A DNA stretch of 64,000 nucleotides from Methylophilaceae bacterium (GTDB taxonomy: Bacteria > Pseudomonadota > Gammaproteobacteria > Burkholderiales > Methylophilaceae). Positions 226 through 11,362 of this stretch are shown here, in pieces. Within the stretch, counting starts at the first letter, position 1; each line of letters opens with the position of its first letter. The notes under the pieces were generated by a model. It did no database searches, had not been told where the DNA came from, and saw only the letters and a list, made by a program, of their open reading frames with translations. The position numbers were made by a program, and so were the translations under genes. The stretch lies in the NCBI GenBank assembly GCA_014378915.1, contig JACMMS010000042.1, positions 1 through 64,000 of the forward strand. The letters are read 5' to 3'.

Positions 226-1128
226 ATGCGGTATATCATTCTTTGTATTTATGCGGCTTGTATCTTATTTGTTCATTTTCGTGGCAAAGCTAGATTACCT
301 TTTTTAAGACAAATTTTTGATCATTCCTCATTTGTTTCACCCATTAATATTTTTGTTTATTTATTCTCAAAAGTACCGACTAAGCAGGCTTATTTGCCTA
401 CAAACCAATTTGAGGACTTGAAACTATTACGAGATAACTGGCAAGTTATTCGTGATGAAGCAGTAGCGCTTGGTCAGCTAGAGAAAATTAAAGCAGCAGA
501 AACAAATAATGATGTAGGCTTTAACTCATTCTTTAAAAAAGGTTGGAAACGTTTTTATTTAAAATGGTATGAGGCAAAACACCCTTCAGCTGTTATGTTT
601 TGCCCAAAAACGGTGGCTTTACTTAATCAAACACCTAGCATTAAAGCTGCCATGTTTGCCGAGCTGCCTCCTGGTGCAAAGTTGAATCCTCACCGCGACC
701 CTTATGCTGGTTCACTTCGCTATCACTTAGGCTTAGTAACGCCCAATGATGACCGATGTTTTATTAATGTAAATAATGAGACTTATAGCTGGCGTGATGG
801 TGAAGATGTGCTATTTGACGAAACTTACATTCATTGGGCACTTAATGGTGGTAATGTCACCCGTATTATCTTACTTTGTGACTTAGAACGCCCGATGAAA
901 TACAAATGGGCGCAATCTATTAATCGTTGGTTGGGGCGCGTTGTGATGACAGCTGGCAGCTCACCCAACGAGACTGGCGATCAAACAGGTGGTGTCAATA
1001 AGGTGTTTCATGTTTTTTGGGTATTTGGCAAGTACAAACGCAGACTCAAAAAATTTAGCAAGCCTTTGTACCATGTCATTAAATTTGGTTTAATTATTGG
1101 CATTGCGGCGCTTATATTTCATTCTTAG
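226..1128 (+). CDS. lpxO: LpxO-like lipid A 2-hydroxylase (aspartyl/asparaginyl beta-hydroxylase family)
   Basis: An Fe(II)/2-oxoglutarate-dependent dioxygenase of the aspartyl/asparaginyl beta-hydroxylase family. LpxO members hydroxylate the C2 position of a secondary acyl chain of lipid A at the inner membrane. Seen in the 300-residue product: an N-terminal hydrophobic segment (about 2-17), the metal-ligand motif HRD (H156, D158), a second metal His at H203, R213 in the usual 2-oxoglutarate-binding position, and a C-terminal hydrophobic segment (about 284-299). The membrane anchors favour LpxO over soluble peptide hydroxylases. The gene stands alone, convergent with the HDOD gene, and the ATG lacks a strong ribosome binding site. 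The lipid A substrate is inferred from the family, not shown. Confidence 0.8.
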   Translation: MRYIILCIYAACILFVHFRGKARLPFLRQIFDHSSFVSPINIFVYLFSKVPTKQAYLPTNQFEDLKLLRDNWQVIRDEAVALGQLEKIKAAETNNDVGFNSFFKKGWKRFYLKWYEAKHPSAVMFCPKTVALLNQTPSIKAAMFAELPPGAKLNPHRDPYAGSLRYHLGLVTPNDDRCFINVNNETYSWRDGEDVLFDETYIHWALNGGNVTRIILLCDLERPMKYKWAQSINRWLGRVVMTAGSSPNETGDQTGGVNKVFHVFWVFGKYKRRLKKFSKPLYHVIKFGLIIGIAALIFHS

Positions 1129-2757: not shown

Positions 2758-5202
2758 CTAACTGCATACTGCTCTAATTTGAGATATGTCAGTCAATCCT
2801 TGTAATACTTTATTGATACCATCTTGCTTGAGCGTTAGCATGCCGTTTTCAAAAGCAGCCGGTATCATTTCTGATACAGGTGCCCGAATTTGAATGAGTC
2901 GTTTGACTTCTGGTGATATGGACATCAGTTCGTGTATGCCTAAGCGACCCTTATAGCCAGTTTGAGCACACGCTGGGCAGCCCACTGATTTACACAAGCT
3001 AAACTTACCCTCTTTTGCATAATCAACCTCCCATTTGACCATGGTTTTTGTAGTATCTAGCGCTATACCATCTGCGTACTCTGTTAGCAGCGCATTAATT
3101 TCTTGCTCATCTGGCGTATAAGTTTGTTTACATTGCACACAAAGTGTTTTCGCTAAACGCTGTGCTAATACAGAAAGTAACGCATCTGCAAAATTAAATG
3201 GATCCATCCCTAAATCTAACAACCTAATGACACTTTCTGGCGCAGTGTTAGTATGTAAAGTAGAAAGTACTAAGTGTCCTGTAAGGGATGCTTCCACCCC
3301 TGTTTTAGCAGTCTCTTGATCACGCATTTCTCCCACCATAATCACATCCGGATCAGCACGTAGAAAGCTACGAATAGCATTGGCAAAGGTCCAGCCTATT
3401 TTGCTATTCACTTGCACTTGACGTAGGCCAGGCTGGGTAATTTCGACAGGATCTTCAGCAGTCCAAATTTTCCTGTCAGGGGTATTGATATGCCCTAGCA
3501 GCGAGTGCAGTGTAGTCGTTTTACCAGAGCCTGTAGGCCCACAAACCAGTATCAAGCCATATGGACGCTCCATGGCTTTTTGTAAGGTTTTTAAAATATG
3601 CGGGCTTAAGCCTAACTTGCTCATTGGCACTGGCTTAGCCGCTGCCAGCACGCGCATGACAATATCTTCTAAACCTGTTGTGGTAGGTATAGTCGCAACG
3701 CGTAACTCTACTTTAGCTGGTCCATATTGGGCAAAATCAATTTTGCCATCTTGTGGTTTACGTCGCTCTGAAATATCGAGCTGTGACATGATTTTGATAC
3801 GAGAAATAACCGCATTACGGAAATTAGCAGGAATTTCTAAGTAGTCAACCAGTGTCCCATCCTTGCGAAAACGCACGCGCGTATTAGCTTTACCCGCATA
3901 AGTTTCTATATGGATATCTGATACGCCATCGTTATAAGCTTCTAAAATCATGGTATTGACTAGTTGCACTAGCGTGTTATCAGACTCTGCAACAGCCTCA
4001 AATGCGCTTTCTTCACTTACTGTGTCTTCGGTAAATAGTTGTGAAGCTAAATCACCTGTATTTTTAGATTGCGAAATATCGAATTCAAGCATGCGTTCTG
4101 CTGGTAAATCTATGCCCGATTGGTCTACTTTGATACCATTGCCAGAGTAATGTTTACTAATGGCCATTTTAATGTCTTCACGCGAAGCCATGGCAGGCAC
4201 AATTTTTAATTGAGTAGCAAAACGTAACTCATCTAGCACCTTGATATTGAGTGGATCTTCAAATGCAACCACGAGTGCTTTTTCATGCATACACAGTGGA
4301 ACCAAAACATGCTTCTTAGCAACGGCCGCTTCTATAAGTCTAAATACGTTTAAATCAAAGTTAAATTTGGTCAAACTCACATAGGGAACGCCTAGTTTCT
4401 TAGCTAGCGCACCTTTTAAAGCGCGTTCGTCCAAGGCACCCATTTCTACTAATATTCTTCCTAAGGGCACCGTACGGTTGTCTTTTTGCTTAGCCAAAGC
4501 AATAGTGAGCTGCTCAGCTGTAATGAGCTCTAACTGTTGTAGGGCCTCACCTAAACGCAAAATTGGCTGACCTTCCTGATGGCGAATTGCCTGCTCTAGC
4601 TCCTCGCGCGTTAGCACCTCATTTTCAGATAAATAATCGCCTATACGCTGTTGACGTAAGTCTTGTTGGCGTGACACAGCCGCGACAACTTCATCTTGAC
4701 TAACCAAGTTTTCTTGCATCAGTAACTCGCCGATTTTTAAGCCAATTTGCTGACTGGCTATTATCTTTTTAGGAAAAAAACAGCACAGCACTTTTTCCTC
4801 TTCTACAGGCACATACAGATACAATCCATTACTTTGATTGCAATGCCCAACGGTGTCGCCTTTGATAATTTCTTTATCATTAAACTCAATGGTGTAAGGC
4901 TGTTTTGTAGAGGCTGGAAACACCTCTTGGGCACGCGCTTCCAAAATACTAAATTGTTTTTTTATGCTAATTGCGCGTGCTAAACGGATAATTTTGATTT
5001 GATCGAGTGGTATCACCTCAATCTCTGAACTCAGGGTAGATTTAAATCGGATGCTGGGCTCACCGGCTGAGAAATGTATCAATTCACCTTGTTTTTTATC
5101 ACCGTTACTGCAATATATTAAGCAAATCTCTGGTGATACTACCTCCTTATCTCTGGCAAAATCGAAATATGGTGGCGCAGGCCATTCGGCAATAGTATGC
5201 AT
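2758..5202 (-). CDS. GspE/PilB-type secretion ATPase with four tandem MshEN-like repeats
   Basis: A hexameric ATPase of the type II secretion/type IV pilus assembly family. Numbered from the chosen ATG (814 aa), an unusual N-terminal region (1-150) precedes four copies of a 24-residue MshEN motif. These start at about 156, 186, 216 and 246, exactly 30 residues apart (IGELL, RIGDYL, RLGEAL, PLGRIL). MshEN domains bind c-di-GMP in MshE. The core follows: Walker A GPTGSGKTTT (555-564), Walker B-like DVIMVGEMRD (619-628), a His box (641-652) and zinc-binding CxxC pairs near the C-terminus. I prefer the ATG at 5202, preceded by AAGAAAG, over a TTG at 5229. No pilC/gspF, pilin or secretin genes adjoin it, so it is an orphan here. 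Its machine is unknown. Confidence 0.85.
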   Translation of the reverse strand: MHTIAEWPAPPYFDFARDKEVVSPEICLIYCSNGDKKQGELIHFSAGEPSIRFKSTLSSEIEVIPLDQIKIIRLARAISIKKQFSILEARAQEVFPASTKQPYTIEFNDKEIIKGDTVGHCNQSNGLYLYVPVEEEKVLCCFFPKKIIASQQIGLKIGELLMQENLVSQDEVVAAVSRQQDLRQQRIGDYLSENEVLTREELEQAIRHQEGQPILRLGEALQQLELITAEQLTIALAKQKDNRTVPLGRILVEMGALDERALKGALAKKLGVPYVSLTKFNFDLNVFRLIEAAVAKKHVLVPLCMHEKALVVAFEDPLNIKVLDELRFATQLKIVPAMASREDIKMAISKHYSGNGIKVDQSGIDLPAERMLEFDISQSKNTGDLASQLFTEDTVSEESAFEAVAESDNTLVQLVNTMILEAYNDGVSDIHIETYAGKANTRVRFRKDGTLVDYLEIPANFRNAVISRIKIMSQLDISERRKPQDGKIDFAQYGPAKVELRVATIPTTTGLEDIVMRVLAAAKPVPMSKLGLSPHILKTLQKAMERPYGLILVCGPTGSGKTTTLHSLLGHINTPDRKIWTAEDPVEITQPGLRQVQVNSKIGWTFANAIRSFLRADPDVIMVGEMRDQETAKTGVEASLTGHLVLSTLHTNTAPESVIRLLDLGMDPFNFADALLSVLAQRLAKTLCVQCKQTYTPDEQEINALLTEYADGIALDTTKTMVKWEVDYAKEGKFSLCKSVGCPACAQTGYKGRLGIHELMSISPEVKRLIQIRAPVSEMIPAAFENGMLTLKQDGINKVLQGLTDISQIRAVCS

Positions 5203-5543
5203 TTTTAACTTTCTTAAATCATGCTTCAAAAGTATGGGTAGATATTTTCTAACGTAATACTAGCAAGCTCACCTTGTAAATGAGCGTTTGAATAACACCA
5301 CTTTATTGGCTCAATTTAACGAGTTTAATGACTAACCTTTTCAAGCAATCACAAGTTTGCTTAATTAAAAGTGCTATTTATTAATTTGCAGATGATGCTT
5401 ATGCAAAAAATTCAACTTGGCTTAGTATGTATGCGTGAGATGTACTCTAAACTATATTAAAATACTGCCTTAAACATGGCAGTTATAAAAGAATCCAGAA
5501 AAGTTACCTGTATTGATAAAGCAAGTAAGTGAAGAGATGAATA
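5203..5543. other. Divergent intergenic region between ATPase gene and RND efflux operon
   Basis: About 340 bases that must hold the promoters for the leftward ATPase/HDOD pair and the rightward efflux operon. The only clear structure is a 6-bp inverted repeat, ACTGCC and GGCAGT (5464-5469 and 5478-5483), about 60 bases before the first efflux gene. It could be an operator. No local TetR or MarR regulator gene is present. I see no RNA gene. Confidence 0.4.
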
Positions 5544-7058
5544 ATGCCTAAAAATAAATCAATAAAAATCAATACTTTGATTGTAATAGCTAGCAGCGCA
5601 CTCATTTCAAGTTGCACATTATTAGAATATTTAAAACCAAATGATTTTTTTCAAAAAAAATTGAAAGATACTGCACCAGCGCCTGCTTGGATTGCACCGC
5701 TACCTCATCAAGGTTCATTAAAAGCATTAAATGCGTTTTGGGCACAATATCAAGACCCTCTACTTATCACACTCATTAGCGCAGCAGAAAAAGAATCTGT
5801 AGATTTAGCCACAGCCAAAACGCGTATTATGCAGGCACGTTCTAACCGCGCTATAGCCAATGGAGCTTTGCTGCCAACCTTAGGAGCCACATCAAGTAGT
5901 TCGATTAGTGTAGAACAGCCGACTCCTAAATATAAAAACAAGGGCGGCTTTAATCCTATACAAAGTGGCGGCCCAACTCGCTCAAATCAGATAGGCTTAC
6001 AATCAGCATGGGAGCTAGATTTGTTTGGCGAAAATGCAGCTGAACTAGATGCTAGTAAAGCTAATTTGCTTGTTGCAGAATCTAGCTGGCATGAGGCACG
6101 AGTTGCACTTGCAGCCGAAGTGGCTACTTCATATTTTGATTATCGCTATTGTAATCAGCAACTTGGCATAACTAAAGCGGATGCGGCATCACGCCACGAA
6201 ACAGCACGGCTGACCGATATATCAGCCAAAGCAGGCTTTACAGATGAAGGCTCGGGCTATGTAGCCCAAGCCAGCGATGCAGCTGGTCAACAACAAGTTT
6301 TACAACAGCAGGCTAGTTGCGATTCAACAATCAAAGAATTAGTCGCACTTACCAATATAGTTGAGGCTGATTTAAAGCAAAAAATGCAACAAAATAACGC
6401 GCCAAAATTGGATGAAAAAACCTCAGCAGCGTTATTTTCTATTTCACAGATTCCCGCAGAAGTGATTGCCCAACGCCCCGATGTATATATGGCAGAACAA
6501 GATGTGATGGCAGCAATTGCTGAATTAAAAAGCAGTAAATTAAATCGCTACCCCACCATTTCGCTGAATGGATCAATTGGTTTACTGCATTTATCTACAA
6601 AAAATTACACTTCTAGCGGTGGGGTTTGGTCATTAGGGCCTTTGTCTATCTCATTTCCAATTTTTGATGGTGGCAAAGCTCAAGCAAATATTGAAGCTAA
6701 GTCGGTAAAACTAGATGAAACCTTCACTAGTTATCGTAGCAAAGTAAGAACCGCTGTCAAAGAAGTAGAGCAGGCTTTAGTAACCTTAGATAGTACGGAA
6801 AAACGCACACAAACCGCGCAAGTTGCAGCAACAAGCTATAAAGCTGCATTAGCGAGTACCGAAATTAAATACCAATCTGGCTTTACAAACATCATTGAAT
6901 TAGAAGATATACGCAGAACCAGCTTACAAGCAGACACCAACATTGTGAGCTTAAGTAAAGAGCGCAATAATGCTTGGATTTCGCTATATCGTGCCGCTGG
7001 TGGCGGTTGGACAGAGGCAGAAGCAAGCAAGCCATTGGCCATAAAAACCGATAATTAG
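5544..7058 (+). CDS. RND efflux outer-membrane lipoprotein, NodT/TolC family
   Basis: The outer-membrane channel of a tripartite efflux pump (504 aa). Seen: a signal peptide ending in a lipobox with lipid-modified Cys at about C24 (LISSC), then two OEP domain halves. These show the family's alternating long helices and the YPTISLNGSIGL and GPLSISFPIFDGG segments before the second beta part. The ATG is preceded by GAAGAG at good spacing. It is first in an operon with the membrane fusion protein (gap 68 bases) and the RND pump. This order, with the channel gene first, is less common than fusion protein-pump-channel. Substrate cannot be read from the sequence. Confidence 0.9.
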   Translation: MPKNKSIKINTLIVIASSALISSCTLLEYLKPNDFFQKKLKDTAPAPAWIAPLPHQGSLKALNAFWAQYQDPLLITLISAAEKESVDLATAKTRIMQARSNRAIANGALLPTLGATSSSSISVEQPTPKYKNKGGFNPIQSGGPTRSNQIGLQSAWELDLFGENAAELDASKANLLVAESSWHEARVALAAEVATSYFDYRYCNQQLGITKADAASRHETARLTDISAKAGFTDEGSGYVAQASDAAGQQQVLQQQASCDSTIKELVALTNIVEADLKQKMQQNNAPKLDEKTSAALFSISQIPAEVIAQRPDVYMAEQDVMAAIAELKSSKLNRYPTISLNGSIGLLHLSTKNYTSSGGVWSLGPLSISFPIFDGGKAQANIEAKSVKLDETFTSYRSKVRTAVKEVEQALVTLDSTEKRTQTAQVAATSYKAALASTEIKYQSGFTNIIELEDIRRTSLQADTNIVSLSKERNNAWISLYRAAGGGWTEAEASKPLAIKTDN

Positions 7059-7126
7059 TAGCTTATTAAACAAAACATTAAGCGGCAAAACATTTATTGG
7101 TTAAACAACTACTGAAAGTAAGTAAC

Positions 7127-8287
7127 ATGCAAATTAGAACATCTCGTTTTGGCAATAAAATCTGGTTAATTTTAGTCATCATCATCATTGCCCTATTTTT
7201 AGTTTTTAAGCATTTTTCAAAGCCTGTTACACAAACAACGTCAAACGTTGCCAATAACACTTCATCTAGCCCTGCGCTCACTGTGCAAACATCAAAACTG
7301 ATTAATATTGAGATGGATAACACCATTGAAGCTAATGGCAGCATTCAACCTTGGCAGGAATCGATTATTGGCGCTGAAGTGAGTGGCTTATTACTTAAGG
7401 AAGTATTAGTGAATGTGGGTGACGAAGTTAAAAAAGGTCAAACTATCGCTAAATTTTCAAGCTCAACGATTGAAGCTGAATTAGCACAGTTTACCGCTAC
7501 ACTTGCTGAAGCAAAAGCTAATTATATTGAAGCTAATAGTAATGCAGAACGTGCACGTAGCATTAAAGAAATGGGGGTGCTCAGCCGCCAACAAATCGAT
7601 CAATTTATGAGTACTGAAGCGGTTGCTAAAGCCCGTATAGAATCGGCTGAAGCCAACTTGAATGTGCAAAAAATAAAGCTGAATCAAACTGTCGTTACTG
7701 CCCCTGATGCGGGCATTATTTCAACGCGCACTGCCACTGTTGGCGCTGTCGCCAATCAAGGTCAAGAGCTATTTCGCTTAATTCGCCAAGGTCGTTTAGA
7801 GTGGCGAGCAGAAATAACCTCTAGTGATATTTCGAAAATCAAAACCAATGAGCCAGTCACGCTGACATTACCAAATGGGCAAACAGTCAATGGTAAAGTG
7901 CGCATTGTTTCGCCTTCAATCGACAATCAAACGCGTAATGGTTTAGCGTTTGTAGATTTACCTAAATCAGCCGCAAAAGCAGGTATGTATGCACGCGGCA
8001 GCTTTCATTTAAGTCAAAATAAAGCACTAACATTACCAGCCAATGCGATTGTGCTACGTGAAGGTTTTGCTTATGTGATGCAAGTTAAGGCGGATCACAG
8101 AATTAAACAAATTAAAGTCAAACTAGCCCGAAGAAGTGCAGACCGCATAGAAATTACAAGTTTAAAAGAAGATGACCTTAAAGACTTAAATGCAGACTTT
8201 GTATCTGCAGGTGGCGCGTTTTTGGCTGATGGCGATTTAGTGCGCGTAGTACCTAATACTTTAACAACTAACAGTTCAACCAACTAA
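7127..8287 (+). CDS. RND efflux periplasmic adaptor (membrane fusion protein, HlyD/AcrA family)
   Basis: The periplasmic adaptor linking the RND pump to the outer-membrane channel. From the chosen ATG it is 386 residues with one N-terminal membrane segment (about 12-28). A biotinyl-lipoyl half (VNVGDEVKKGQTIAKF) follows, then a coiled-coil hairpin of about 65 residues, the second lipoyl half and beta-barrel domains. I chose the ATG at 7127, with GAAAG eight bases upstream, over the TTG at 7097. It sits between the channel and pump genes, 18 bases before the pump start. No lipobox is seen, so it is anchored by its membrane helix. Confidence 0.9.
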   Translation: MQIRTSRFGNKIWLILVIIIIALFLVFKHFSKPVTQTTSNVANNTSSSPALTVQTSKLINIEMDNTIEANGSIQPWQESIIGAEVSGLLLKEVLVNVGDEVKKGQTIAKFSSSTIEAELAQFTATLAEAKANYIEANSNAERARSIKEMGVLSRQQIDQFMSTEAVAKARIESAEANLNVQKIKLNQTVVTAPDAGIISTRTATVGAVANQGQELFRLIRQGRLEWRAEITSSDISKIKTNEPVTLTLPNGQTVNGKVRIVSPSIDNQTRNGLAFVDLPKSAAKAGMYARGSFHLSQNKALTLPANAIVLREGFAYVMQVKADHRIKQIKVKLARRSADRIEITSLKEDDLKDLNADFVSAGGAFLADGDLVRVVPNTLTTNSSTN

Positions 8288-8305
8288 GCAGAATAGGGGA
8301 ATTAA

Positions 8306-11300
8306 ATGAACGTTTCTGCTTGGTCGATTAAGAACCCAATTCCCGCCATTATTTTGTTTTTCATGTTGTCGTTTGCTGGCTTTATTAGCTTTAAATCGAT
8401 GAAAATTCAAAATTTCCCAGATTTAGACTTACCTACAGTAACGATTAGTGCCGCTTTACCGGGCGCTTCACCAACACAGTTAGAATCTGAAGTTGCACGG
8501 AAAATTGAAAACTCACTGACTACCCTGCAAGGTCTAAAACACACTTACACGACCATTCAAGATGGTAGCGTGAGTATTACAGCAGAATTTAACCTTGAAA
8601 AACCTACGCAAGAAGCAGTTGATGATGTGCGCTCGGCCATTTCACAAATCCGTGCCGATTTGCCTACCGACTTACGTGACCCTGTTGTGAGCAAGCTCAA
8701 TGTTGCGGGCTCACCCATGTTGGCTTACACCATTCACTCTACACAAATGGATGATGAAGCACTCTCTTGGTTCGTAGATGATGCCTTATCCAAACGCTTG
8801 CTTGGGATTAAAGGTGTAGGCACAGTGAGCCGCGTTGGCGGTGTTAGCCGGCAGATTTGGATTGAGTTAGACACGGCTAAGCTACAATCACTCAACGCAA
8901 CCGCAGGTGACATTTCAAGACAATTACGTAACATACAAATGGAAAGTGCGGGCGGCTCGACCAAACTAGGTGGTAGTGAGCAACCCATTAGAACGATTGC
9001 CACTGTAAAGTCTGCAGATGAATTAAGCCAGGTACAAATTGTATTAAGTAATGGCGAAAAAATTCGCTTAGATCAAGTCGCACATGTGATTGATACAGTA
9101 GCTGAGCCAACTTCATTAGCATTACTCAATGGTGATAGCGTTGTCGGCTTTGAAATTGTTCGCAGCAAAGGCGCCAGTGAGGTTGAGGTAGGCGCTGGCG
9201 TTAGAAAAGCCTTAAACGAATTAATCAAAGAGCGACCAGATATTAAAATCACCGAAGCTTTTGACTTTGTGACACCAGTACAACAAGAGTTTGATGCTTC
9301 TATGACCTTGCTTTATGAAGGTGCAATTTTAGCTGTGCTGGTTGTTTGGCTGTTCTTACGCGATTTACGCGCAACATTTATCTCAGCAGTCGCGATTCCG
9401 CTATCGGTTATTCCAACTTTTATCGGCATGCAGTACTTTGGTTTTACTATTAATGTCGTCACCCTACTCGCTTTATCTTTGGTCATCGGTATTTTGGTGG
9501 ACGATGCGATTGTTGAAGTAGAAAATATCGTACGACATTTGCGCATGGGTAAAGCACCTTACCAAGCGGCGATGGAAGCATCTGATGAAATTGGTTTGGC
9601 TGTCATTGCTACAACCTTCACACTCATTGCTGTATTTTTGCCTACTGCGTTCATGAGTGGTATACCAGGTAAGTTTTTTAAGCAGTTCGGCTGGACAGCA
9701 GCCATTGCAGTATTTGCTTCACTGTTGGTAGCACGTGCACTTACGCCAATGATGGCAGCCTATTTAATGAAACCAATTGTAGATCACACGCATGAAGATG
9801 GTCGTGTTATGCGCTGGTATATGCAAGCCAGTGGCTGGTGCATAAAAAATCGTCTTATAACTTCATTAGCTGCAGGTGCATTTTTTATTGGTTCTTTAAT
9901 GCTAATTCCGTTATTGCCGACAGGATTTATCCCAGCTGATGACAGCTCACAATCTCAAGTACGCTTAGAATTAGCGCCAGGTGCAACGCTTAATCAAACA
10001 AGAGAAACTGCTGAAATAGCGCGACAACTGGTTGCAAAAGTTGCACATGTGAAAAGCATTTATACGACGATTGGGGGCGGTGCAGCGGGGACTGATCCAT
10101 TTTATAGTTCTGGTGCATCAGAAACACGTGAAGCAACGCTCACAATTTTATTAGATGCACGTGGCAGTAGACCAAAAAAACAAATTATCGAAGCTGATAT
10201 CAGAACCGCAGTACAAGACCTGCCTGGCGCGCGCGTCACAGTAGGTTTAGGCGGTTCTGGTGAAAAATATATTTTGGTGCTTGCTGGTGAAGATGCACAA
10301 GCATTACAAACCGCTGCTGCCGCAGTTGAAAAAGACTTACGTACCATAAAAGGCTTAGGTAATATCTCATCCAGCGCTTCGTTAGTACGCTCAGAAGTAG
10401 TCGCAAAACCTGATTTTGCAGCTGCGGCTGACTTGGGCGTAACCACGGCGAATATTGCTGATACCTTGCGTATAGCCACAGTGGGCGATTACGACCAATT
10501 ACTGACTAAGCTCAATTTATCACAACGGCAAATCCCAATTGTTGTCAAAGTGAGCACCAGCGCAAGAAAAGACTTAAGCGAATTAGAGCGATTATCAGTA
10601 CCCGGGTCACGCGGCCCTGTCATGCTGAGCCAAGTTGCCAAACTTGAAATTGCAGGTGGCCCAGCACAGATTGATCGCTATGATCGCTCTAAAAATGTGC
10701 AATTTAATATCGAACTTGCAAAAAGAGCATTAGGCGATGTCACAGCAGAAGTAGCGAAGTTGCCTAGTATTAAAAGCTTGCCTAATGGCGTAACACAAAA
10801 AGAACAAGGTGATGCTGAGGTGATGGGTGAATTATTTGCGAGTTTTGGCTTAGCCATGCTCACAGGTGTACTTTGCATATTTTTTGTTTTAGTGCTGTTA
10901 TTTAAAGATTTTTTACAACCTGTAACCATTTTAGCCGCACTGCCCTTGTCTTTAGGTGGTGCATTTCTGGGATTACTCATTGCCGATAAAAGTCTCTCTA
11001 TGCCATCTATGATTGGTTTAGTTATGCTGATGGGGATTGCGACTAAAAACTCTATTTTACTAGTAGAGTACGCAATTGTTGCAAGGCGCGACCATGGTAT
11101 GAATCGCCTAGAAGCCATTATAGATGCCTGCCACAAACGGGCACGCCCTATCATCATGACAACCATCGCGATGAGTGCTGGCATGCTGCCTATTGCCATG
11201 GCGTGGGGTTCTGGTGATGTTTCATTTAGAAGCCCGATGGCAGCAGCCGTGATTGGCGGTTTACTGACTTCAACGCTATTAAGTTTATTAGTAATTCCCG

Positions 11301-11362
11301 TAGTATTTACTTATGTAGATGATTTTTCACAGTTTTGCGTAAGGCTTTGGCACAAACTTTAA
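8306..11362 (+). CDS. RND multidrug efflux transporter (AcrB/HAE1 family)
   Basis: The inner-membrane, proton-driven pump of the tripartite system (1018 aa, slightly shorter than AcrB). Seen: an N-terminal helix, two large periplasmic loops, and twelve predicted membrane segments. The proton-relay pair D399-D400 lies in the VDDAIVEVENI motif of TM4, and K914 lies in TKNSILLVEYA of TM10, matching the AcrB Asp-Asp-Lys triad. The start has a strong AGGGGA site. The missing tail after TM12 and the N-terminus SIKNPIPAIILFF place it in the shorter HAE1 branch that often sits with a lone adaptor. Substrates could be hydrophobic drugs or solvents; none is shown. Confidence 0.93.
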   Translation: MNVSAWSIKNPIPAIILFFMLSFAGFISFKSMKIQNFPDLDLPTVTISAALPGASPTQLESEVARKIENSLTTLQGLKHTYTTIQDGSVSITAEFNLEKPTQEAVDDVRSAISQIRADLPTDLRDPVVSKLNVAGSPMLAYTIHSTQMDDEALSWFVDDALSKRLLGIKGVGTVSRVGGVSRQIWIELDTAKLQSLNATAGDISRQLRNIQMESAGGSTKLGGSEQPIRTIATVKSADELSQVQIVLSNGEKIRLDQVAHVIDTVAEPTSLALLNGDSVVGFEIVRSKGASEVEVGAGVRKALNELIKERPDIKITEAFDFVTPVQQEFDASMTLLYEGAILAVLVVWLFLRDLRATFISAVAIPLSVIPTFIGMQYFGFTINVVTLLALSLVIGILVDDAIVEVENIVRHLRMGKAPYQAAMEASDEIGLAVIATTFTLIAVFLPTAFMSGIPGKFFKQFGWTAAIAVFASLLVARALTPMMAAYLMKPIVDHTHEDGRVMRWYMQASGWCIKNRLITSLAAGAFFIGSLMLIPLLPTGFIPADDSSQSQVRLELAPGATLNQTRETAEIARQLVAKVAHVKSIYTTIGGGAAGTDPFYSSGASETREATLTILLDARGSRPKKQIIEADIRTAVQDLPGARVTVGLGGSGEKYILVLAGEDAQALQTAAAAVEKDLRTIKGLGNISSSASLVRSEVVAKPDFAAAADLGVTTANIADTLRIATVGDYDQLLTKLNLSQRQIPIVVKVSTSARKDLSELERLSVPGSRGPVMLSQVAKLEIAGGPAQIDRYDRSKNVQFNIELAKRALGDVTAEVAKLPSIKSLPNGVTQKEQGDAEVMGELFASFGLAMLTGVLCIFFVLVLLFKDFLQPVTILAALPLSLGGAFLGLLIADKSLSMPSMIGLVMLMGIATKNSILLVEYAIVARRDHGMNRLEAIIDACHKRARPIIMTTIAMSAGMLPIAMAWGSGDVSFRSPMAAAVIGGLLTSTLLSLLVIPVVFTYVDDFSQFCVRLWHKL

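What the first reader, a model, noticed from the sequence alone, without database searches (positions are those of the whole stretch)
2758..5202. Orphan secretion ATPase with four MshEN-like repeats at exact 30-residue spacing
MshEN domains in MshE use two 24-residue motifs separated by a short spacer to bind c-di-GMP. Here four motif copies start at about residues 156, 186, 216 and 246, which could form two binding modules. A further 150-residue N-terminal domain is unfamiliar. No pilus or type II secretion genes adjoin it, but an HDOD-GAF protein is downstream, suggesting a c-di-GMP-controlled machine with a regulatory partner.
Basis: partly seen in the sequence, partly recalled or inferred. 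Interest (0 to 1): 0.5.

Follow-up and report, generated by a model that had tools for sequence, protein, structure and literature searches.

The report
Orphan pilus-type ATPase with doubled sensor
This gene encodes an ATPase related to the motors that build bacterial pili, but it sits away from any pilus genes and carries an enlarged front end (two small barrels plus two modules of a kind that binds the signal molecule c-di-GMP), so it may be a signal-controlled accessory pilus motor or switch.

Summary
Four 24-residue MshEN motifs start at residues 156, 186, 216 and 246. R3+R4 plus a C-subdomain model as a standard MshEN domain (Z 16.6 to MshE 5htl). R1+R2 look like a second module: in 70 homologues their Gly is kept together in 64 and lost together in 6. 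The ligand Gln is kept in R1-R3 of most, but R4 has Lys in 69 of 70. The N-domain is predicted as two small beta-barrels, Sm/Tudor-like.

The protein recurs patchily in Pseudomonadota. No PilC/GspF homologue was found beside 79 distinct loci. It misses the PilB, GspE and TfpB cut-offs, while its own genome has all three. The HDOD-GAF neighbour is not conserved there. Three homologues, and a milder fourth, have lost catalytic residues.

Best reading: an orphan branch of PilB-type ATPases, probably a c-di-GMP-gated accessory motor on an existing platform. Binding and function are untested.

The parts
2758..5202 (-). orphan PilB/GspE-type ATPase gene, 814 aa (ATG at 5202; alternative TTG at 5229)
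   Evidence: close homologues start at the ATG-aligned residue
4975..5133 (-). first small beta-barrel, Sm/Hfq-like by fold (residues 24-76)
   Evidence: AlphaFold model, block pLDDT 83-97; VIA places Hfq chains on about residues 1-81, Z up to 7.6; Foldseek Hfq 1kq2 rmsd 1.1 over 49 columns, E 0.068
4741..4905 (-). second small beta-barrel (residues 100-154)
   Evidence: strands in both models, block pLDDT 94-97 in the second; tandem match to 53BP1 Tudor domains at E 2.6e-3 but rmsd 12.6
4666..4737 (-). MshEN motif R1 (residues 156-179, KIG...Q)
4576..4647 (-). MshEN motif R2 (residues 186-209, RIG...Q)
   Evidence: Gly lost together with that of R1 in 6 of 70 homologues
4486..4557 (-). MshEN motif R3 (residues 216-239, RLG...Q), the most conserved
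   Evidence: G3, L6, L21, Q24 in 70 of 70; K/R at position 1 in 65 of 70
4396..4467 (-). MshEN motif R4 (residues 246-269, PLG...K)
   Evidence: Lys instead of Gln at position 24 in 69 of 70
4141..4395 (-). MshEN C-subdomain (residues 270-354)
   Evidence: Pfam PF05157 at 270-354; model residues 212-352 align to MshE 5htl, Z 16.6
2776..3987 (-). T2SSE ATPase domain (residues 406-809), with Walker A at 3514-3540, Walker B and catalytic Glu at 3319-3345, and CxxC pairs
   Evidence: PF00437 396.8 bits; active-site residues
1159..2709 (-). downstream HDOD-GAF protein, 48 nt from the ATPase, possibly co-transcribed here; not a conserved neighbour
   Evidence: beside the ATPase in no other locus searched

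Best explanation
It is an orphan assembly ATPase of the PilB/GspE superfamily, from a branch that is neither PilB, GspE nor TfpB by curated cut-offs. From the N-terminus it has two Sm/Tudor-like small beta-barrels, an extra MshEN_N module (R1+R2), a standard MshEN domain (R3+R4+C), then the ATPase. Proposed mechanism: c-di-GMP binds the R1-R2 module (and perhaps R3-R4 in a modified way), shifts the N-terminal crown of a hexamer, and so lets the motor dock on, or leave, a PilC/GspF platform that belongs to one of the host's existing pilus or type II systems, with the barrels as the docking or ring-forming part. It would act as a signal-gated second extension motor, comparable in role to TfpB. 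Shown here: the sequence architecture, its conservation, the orphan location, catalytic residues in nearly all homologues, and genomes with pilus and c-di-GMP genes. Predicted by model: the folds. Inferred: hexamer formation, c-di-GMP binding, platform sharing and the effect on piliation.
For: MshEN and T2SSE over curated cut-offs. R3-R4-C models as MshEN, Z 16.6 to the c-di-GMP-bound MshE structure. R1 and R2 Gly kept or lost together, 64 and 6 of 70; Q24 in R1 61, R2 65, R3 70 of 70. Walker A Lys in 69 of 69 and catalytic Glu in 66 of 69 where covered. No PilC/GspF homologue beside any of 79 distinct loci (the queries find each other). Of 31 genomes with the protein (own included), 30 have PF00482 matches and 27 are listed with PilB over the cut-off (the tally line says 28). 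Own genome: eight PF00482 matches in four proteins, each beside another ATPase; 23 GGDEF and 21 EAL matches, some fragmentary. GGDEF/EAL-like genes are 10 of 144 immediate neighbours, in 8 of 79 loci, plus a REC-HD-GYP gene in L066. Precedent: TfpB, a PilB homologue outside the pilB-pilC cluster, needed for efficient pilus extension (PMC8213720, passages).
Against: No binding or motor activity has been measured. R4 lacks the Gln, and position 1 of R1 and R2 is variable (K/R/L in 25 and 39 of 70). None of the 70 R1 or R2 segments fits the relaxed motif of Wang 2016, mainly because their turn Gly is replaced; R3 fits in 16 and R4 in 32. R1-R2 are degenerate in 6 of 70 homologues and the active site in three, with a milder fourth, so neither sensor nor motor is indispensable to the family. 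71 of 79 loci have no GGDEF/EAL-like immediate neighbour. The protein is patchy: 12 of 59 other family genomes and 17 of 368 other class genomes.
Confidence: 0.5

Rival explanations
1. The repeats are docking elements that no longer bind c-di-GMP, as in XpsE and PilF GSPII-A. The ATPase is regulated by partners through the barrels and the MshEN region, like PilB with PilZ.
For: R4 has Lys for Gln in 69 of 70, and R1 and R2 fail the relaxed motif of Wang 2016 in all 70. PilF GSPII-A, in a truncated construct, needed both Gln and the Arg restored before binding was measurable (PMC12002112, passages). XpsE lost binding through changes at such positions (PMC5013675 section 12). X. citri PilB N1 binds PilZ (PMC11656802, passages).
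Against: R1, R2 and R3 keep Gly and Gln in most homologues, and R3 keeps G, L and Q in all 70. GSPII-C of PilF binds although its motif II begins with Pro (PMC11731258, passages). c-di-GMP genes lie beside some family members.
Confidence: 0.2
2. It is mainly a signalling scaffold, not a motor: a c-di-GMP-reading ring that controls piliation or polysaccharide by binding PilB, its stator or other partners. In some lineages it is a pseudo-ATPase.
For: L080 and L081 lack the catalytic Glu, Asp-box and His-box residues; L082 lacks the Asp-box and His-box residues; L173 has milder Asp-box changes. R1-R3 remain recognisable in all four. PilB acts as a signalling protein for exopolysaccharide in M. 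xanthus (PMC5544727, start of abstract in the search listing). Related long ATPases carry GAF or REC input domains.
Against: The window protein and nearly all homologues keep the full active site. Long branches of L081 and L082 point to relaxed constraint.
Confidence: 0.17
3. It drives a separate secretion or pilus machine with its own, unrecognised platform protein.
For: In a quick tree the family lies apart from the PilB, TfpB, GspE and C123-type rows, apart from two divergent members. Every PilC/GspF found in this genome sits with another ATPase.
Against: No partner gene recurs across the family; shared neighbours are local to sub-clades and the 29 neighbours annotated were diverse. No secretin match lies on this contig.
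Confidence: 0.08

Closest known systems
MshE and MshEN-type PilB ATPases (V. cholerae MshE, M. xanthus PilB, C. perfringens PilB2)
   Same: MshEN then T2SSE; R3-R4-C aligns with MshE (Z 16.6, 140 residues, rmsd 3.7)
   Different: Those are extension ATPases of pilus systems, and no extra MshEN_N module or N-terminal barrels are mentioned for them in the passages read. Here the gene is an orphan, has an extra R1-R2 module and two barrels, and has Lys for the Gln of motif II in the canonical pair.
Thermus PilF (three GSPII domains)
   Same: More than two c-di-GMP motifs in series before one ATPase; motif II of GSPII-C also begins with Pro
   Different: PilF has three successive GSPII domains; here there is one MshEN C-subdomain. 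Homologues L117-L119 appear to have six motifs.
TfpB (Acinetobacter baylyi accessory extension motor)
   Same: PilB homologue outside the pilB-pilC cluster in a genome that also has PilB
   Different: TfpB model score 404.4, under the 850 cut-off; the same genome has a TfpB at C136 with 871.2 bits.
REC-MshEN-T2SSE and GAF-MshEN-T2SSE ATPases in related genomes (L193-L196; L067:149-2530, L198-L200)
   Same: Long ATPases with a signal-input domain before MshEN; the GAF type is nearest outside the family, 54-62% identical in the ATPase domain
   Different: The input domain is GAF or REC instead of two barrels and an extra MshEN_N module.
Hfq / Sm proteins
   Same: First barrel resembles Hfq (Foldseek rmsd 1.1-1.3 over 49-52 columns; VIA Z up to 7.6)
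   Different: No Hfq or LSM Pfam hit in the window protein at E up to 1; 2 and 5 of 29 homologues hit them weakly. The YKH motif of Hfq (recalled) is not seen at the matching turn, by eye. RNA binding is not indicated.

Membership tests
PilB/GspE (T2SSE) assembly ATPases | T2SSE domain with Walker A, catalytic Glu, Asp and His boxes and CxxC pairs | tested here: met
   PF00437 394.5 bits, cut-off 24.9; motifs present in the window protein
PilB (TIGR02538) | score over the equivalog cut-off 675.65 | tested here: not met
   535.9 bits
PilB (TIGR02538) | gene next to pilC | tested here: not met
   no PF00482 match on this contig; none beside 79 distinct homologous loci
GspE (TIGR02533) | score over the equivalog cut-off 630.25 | tested here: not met
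   467 bits
TfpB (NF053534) | score over the equivalog cut-off 850 | tested here: not met
   404.4 bits; another protein of the same genome scores 871.2
MshEN c-di-GMP receptor domain | sequence match to the domain models | tested here: met
   NF053729 66.9 bits (cut-off 38); PF05157 67.7 bits (cut-off 23.1)
MshEN c-di-GMP receptor domain | ligand residues (R/K/L)LG, two Leu and Gln in both motifs of a pair | tested here: inconclusive
   window R1-R2 fit with Ile/Val for some Leu; R3 fits; R4 has Pro at 1 and Lys at 24
MshEN c-di-GMP receptor domain | relaxed 24-residue motif of Wang 2016 in each repeat | tested here: not met
   of 70 homologues R1 0, R2 0, R3 16, R4 32 fit
MshEN c-di-GMP receptor domain | binds c-di-GMP | not testable with these tools
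   needs ITC, DRaCALA or a structure
Thermus PilF type | several complete GSPII domains, each with its C-subdomain | tested here: not met
   one PF05157 stretch and one C-subdomain in the model
Sm/Hfq fold | five-stranded small barrel superposing on Sm proteins | tested here: inconclusive
   Foldseek probability 1.00 but E 0.03-0.07; VIA Z up to 7.6, under the 8 that the tool advises
PATAN (DUF4388, PF14332) | score over the Pfam cut-off of 25 bits | tested here: not met
   22.1 bits for residues 1-403; hits at E up to 1 in 28 of 29 homologues, best E 1.2e-8

The most novel reading that the evidence does not exclude
A distinct class of c-di-GMP-reading rings built on a pilus-motor chassis. Two small barrels per subunit would crown a hexamer and recruit a partner, two MshEN_N modules in series would give a two-step or cooperative response, and the family would act mainly as a switch on other motors (even as pseudo-ATPases in some lineages) rather than as a motor of its own.
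Probability: 0.18. Interest if true: 0.72.

Novelty: new variant of a known kind. Interest (0 to 1): 0.42.

Why it matters
Why bacteria keep several PilB-like ATPases is an open question (a review, PMC11656802, has a section so headed; passages seen). This family gives a testable case: an orphan motor in a genome that already has PilB, GspE and TfpB, with two MshEN_N modules in series and an added tandem barrel. If c-di-GMP binding is confirmed, it would show how one platform could be driven by motors with different signal thresholds. The catalytically degenerate homologues would let sensor and motor functions be separated by nature rather than by mutation.

Tried and rejected
HDOD-GAF as functional partner: rejected as a conserved link. 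A first tblastn over the loci gave nothing; I repeated it with positive controls, and of 108 sources only the window has the gene, while both controls were found. Co-occurrence in the family is 7 of 12 other ATPase-bearing against 7 of 47 other genomes, Fisher p 0.004 by genome but 0.077 by genus. In three of those seven genomes (G016, G034, G046) the two genes lie about 20 kb apart; in the other four they are on different contigs.

Hfq-like RNA binding: put low; fold resemblance only. Foldseek and VIA lists hold Hfq, LSm, tandem Tudor and other barrels. For the model of residues 1-213 no MshEN structure appears among the 50 rows shown in either list, so structure did not confirm R1-R2 as MshEN_N; that rests on sequence and on joint loss.

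R2-R3 as the binding pair: by ligand residues it is the most canonical pair, but the MshEN model of R3-R4-C and the joint loss of R1 and R2 argue for R1-R2 and R3-R4. Some of the six joint losses are in related genomes. L117-L119 seem to have six motifs, so their R1 and R2 columns are approximate.

DUF6982 (15 of 29 homologues, best E 1.8e-7) and DUF4388 gave no lead; a search for papers naming them found none. 'MshEN + Methylotenera' and 'GspE + orphan + ATPase + type IV pilus + Sm-like' found none; 'MshEN + orphan + ATPase' found 11, not read further. Searches listed other papers, none showing this architecture in the listing. These cover one open-access library only, so I do not claim that the family is unpublished.

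The tree is quick and has long branches. Sm-type rows need 3 changes, so a single origin of the N-domain is not shown.

Parts used: Pfam was run on 29 neighbours. The GGDEF/EAL count uses a profile of four proteins, not Pfam; the five neighbours of 421-442 aa were not checked further. Searches use 70 of 79 distinct loci (proteins of 600 aa or more; distinct by the last 200 residues). L067:149-2530, without the barrels, was left out of A1-A3. A4 holds 63 of the 68 refs listed (L117, L118, L119, L183, L184 left out). L063, L145 and L160 were flagged because contig ends or frames cut their ATPase.

Full report
WHAT IS THERE. The gene runs on the minus strand from an ATG at 5202 to a stop at 2758 and encodes 814 residues. 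Four 24-residue MshEN motifs start at residues 156, 186, 216 and 246. A pattern written after seeing them finds 4 in the protein and at most 1 in any of 5000 shuffles. The standard MshEN unit is two 24-residue motifs with a 5-residue spacer (PMC5013675: first part of the text, passages and section 12), so the spacing is normal and the number is the unusual part.

ARCHITECTURE. Pfam gives MshEN at residues 270-354 and T2SSE over the ATPase. NCBIfam's c-di-GMP motif model passes its cut-off. An AlphaFold model of residues 1-403 on 29 sequences (mean pLDDT 75.6, pTM 0.42) shows two groups of strands, eight helices from the four motifs, and an alpha/beta C-subdomain. Residues 212-352 align with c-di-GMP-bound MshE (Z 16.6, rmsd 3.7, 140 residues), so R3+R4+C is the MshEN domain. 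A second model, residues 1-213 on 63 sequences (mean pLDDT 83.7, pTM 0.70), gives VIA matches of Hfq chains to about residues 1-81 with Z up to 7.6 and Foldseek matches to Hfq at rmsd 1.1-1.3 over 49-52 columns with E 0.03-0.07. I claim only a Sm/Tudor-like small barrel.

THE FOUR MOTIFS ARE TWO MODULES. In 70 full-length homologues the Gly of R1 and R2 is present together in 64 and absent together in 6, with no mixed case. Some of the six are related, so they are not six independent events. R3 keeps G3, L6, L21 and Q24 in all 70. R1 and R2 keep the ligand Gln in 61 and 65 of 70; R4 has Lys in 69 and Arg in 1. Position 1 is K/R in 65 of 70 for R3 but mixed elsewhere. Against this, the relaxed motif of Wang 2016 is met by R1 and R2 in 0 of 70, by R3 in 16 and by R4 in 32, largely because the central turn Gly is replaced in R1-R3 (all). 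Lys or Leu at position 1 is compatible with very tight binding in PilF GSPII-B, and Pro begins motif II of GSPII-C, which binds (PMC11731258, passages). In a truncated GSPII-A construct both Gln and the Arg had to be restored for measurable binding (PMC12002112, passages). R1-R2 therefore looks the more competent pair and R3-R4 is doubtful.

DISTRIBUTION. The N-terminal half is found in 12 of 59 other genomes of the family and 17 of 368 other genomes drawn from the class at E 1e-20. The barrel region is found in 6 of 397 other genomes drawn from the phylum at E 1e-4. A named-genome scan gave 73 related loci, a minority without the barrels: Methylotenera, Methylovorus, Novimethylophilus, Methylobacillus, Collimonas, Chromatiales, Pseudomonadales and others. 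The window is most likely Methylophilaceae. I fetched the surroundings of 5 of the 6 phylum-level hits; in each the barrel region lies on an ORF that aligns through the ATPase. The sixth (L112) was too short to show it.

ORPHAN STATUS. BLAST with the four PilC/GspF proteins of this genome found no homologue beside any of 79 distinct loci with the barrel region. The one hit, L191, is a Clostridium locus without it. Flanks were mostly 6-8 kb and shorter at contig ends. Of 31 genomes with the protein, own included, 30 have PF00482 matches, and 27 are listed with PilB over the cut-off, where the tally line says 28. The window's genome has six long ATPases of this superfamily: PilB at C36, GspE at C106, TfpB at C136 (871.2 bits, cut-off 850), two at C123 and C133 that pass none of these three models, and this one. 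Four of the others have a PilC/GspF beside them; the TfpB does not. TfpB in A. baylyi is a second extension motor outside the pilB-pilC cluster and is needed for efficient pilus extension (PMC8213720, passages). It is the closest functional precedent.

CATALYSIS. Walker A Lys is 69 of 69 and the catalytic Glu 66 of 69 where covered. L080 and L081 lack the catalytic Glu, the Asp-box acidic residues and the His; L082 keeps the Glu but lacks the Asp-box residues and the His; L173 has milder Asp-box changes. R1-R3 stay recognisable in all four, with Lys for Gln in R1 of L082.

SURROUNDINGS. An HDOD-GAF gene lies 48 nt downstream on the same strand. It is beside no other family member among 108 sources. 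GGDEF/EAL-like genes are 10 of 144 immediate neighbours, in 8 of 79 distinct loci (L058, L065, L121, L124, L136, L145, L161, L180), against 22 of 1064 ORFs overall, duplicate loci included. Four of these proteins were confirmed by Pfam (L058, L065, L124, L136). L066 has a REC-HD-GYP gene upstream. The genome has 23 GGDEF and 21 EAL matches, some fragmentary. Related long ATPases with REC or GAF input domains exist in some of the same genomes, and the GAF types fall near the Sm type in a quick tree.

VERDICT. A known kind of machine part in an arrangement that I did not find described in the searches made. I put the c-di-GMP-gated accessory motor at 0.5. The membership tests for PilB, GspE and TfpB fail; the MshEN domain test is met by domain models, is mixed at the ligand residues, and is open for binding.

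Noticed in passing
L080:6358-8907, L081:7966-10461, L082:7811-10258, L173:576-3053: Homologues with degenerate (L173: milder) catalytic boxes but recognisable MshEN motifs, possible pseudo-ATPases.
   Followed up: partly
L117, L118, L119 (another class of the phylum): Homologues with motif spacings of about 58 and 59-61, consistent with six motifs in series.
   Followed up: partly
L193-L196; L198-L200 and L067:149-2530: REC-MshEN-T2SSE and GAF-MshEN-T2SSE ATPases in related genomes; in L067 the GAF type lies about 5.6 kb from the Sm type.
   Followed up: partly
L092:14274-16061 (own genome, C136): A TfpB over the NCBIfam cut-off, without a PilC/GspF match on its contig.
   Followed up: partly
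L152, L168, L148 and similar loci: In up to 19 of 79 loci the gene follows same-strand genes whose lengths look like the end of the ribosomal rpsM-to-rplQ run (recognised by length only); in L152 a class V aminotransferase and an EamA transporter lie between.
   Followed up: no
window 5544-11362: Divergent gene trio that reads as outer-membrane factor, membrane fusion protein and RND pump (by eye from the translations).
   Followed up: no
window 226-1128: Aspartyl/asparaginyl beta-hydroxylase family protein (PF05118) on the far side of the HDOD-GAF gene.
   Followed up: no
own genome C119:86382-87564, beyond the window: Fragmented GGDEF and EAL matches with stops, a likely decayed c-di-GMP enzyme gene.
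   Followed up: no
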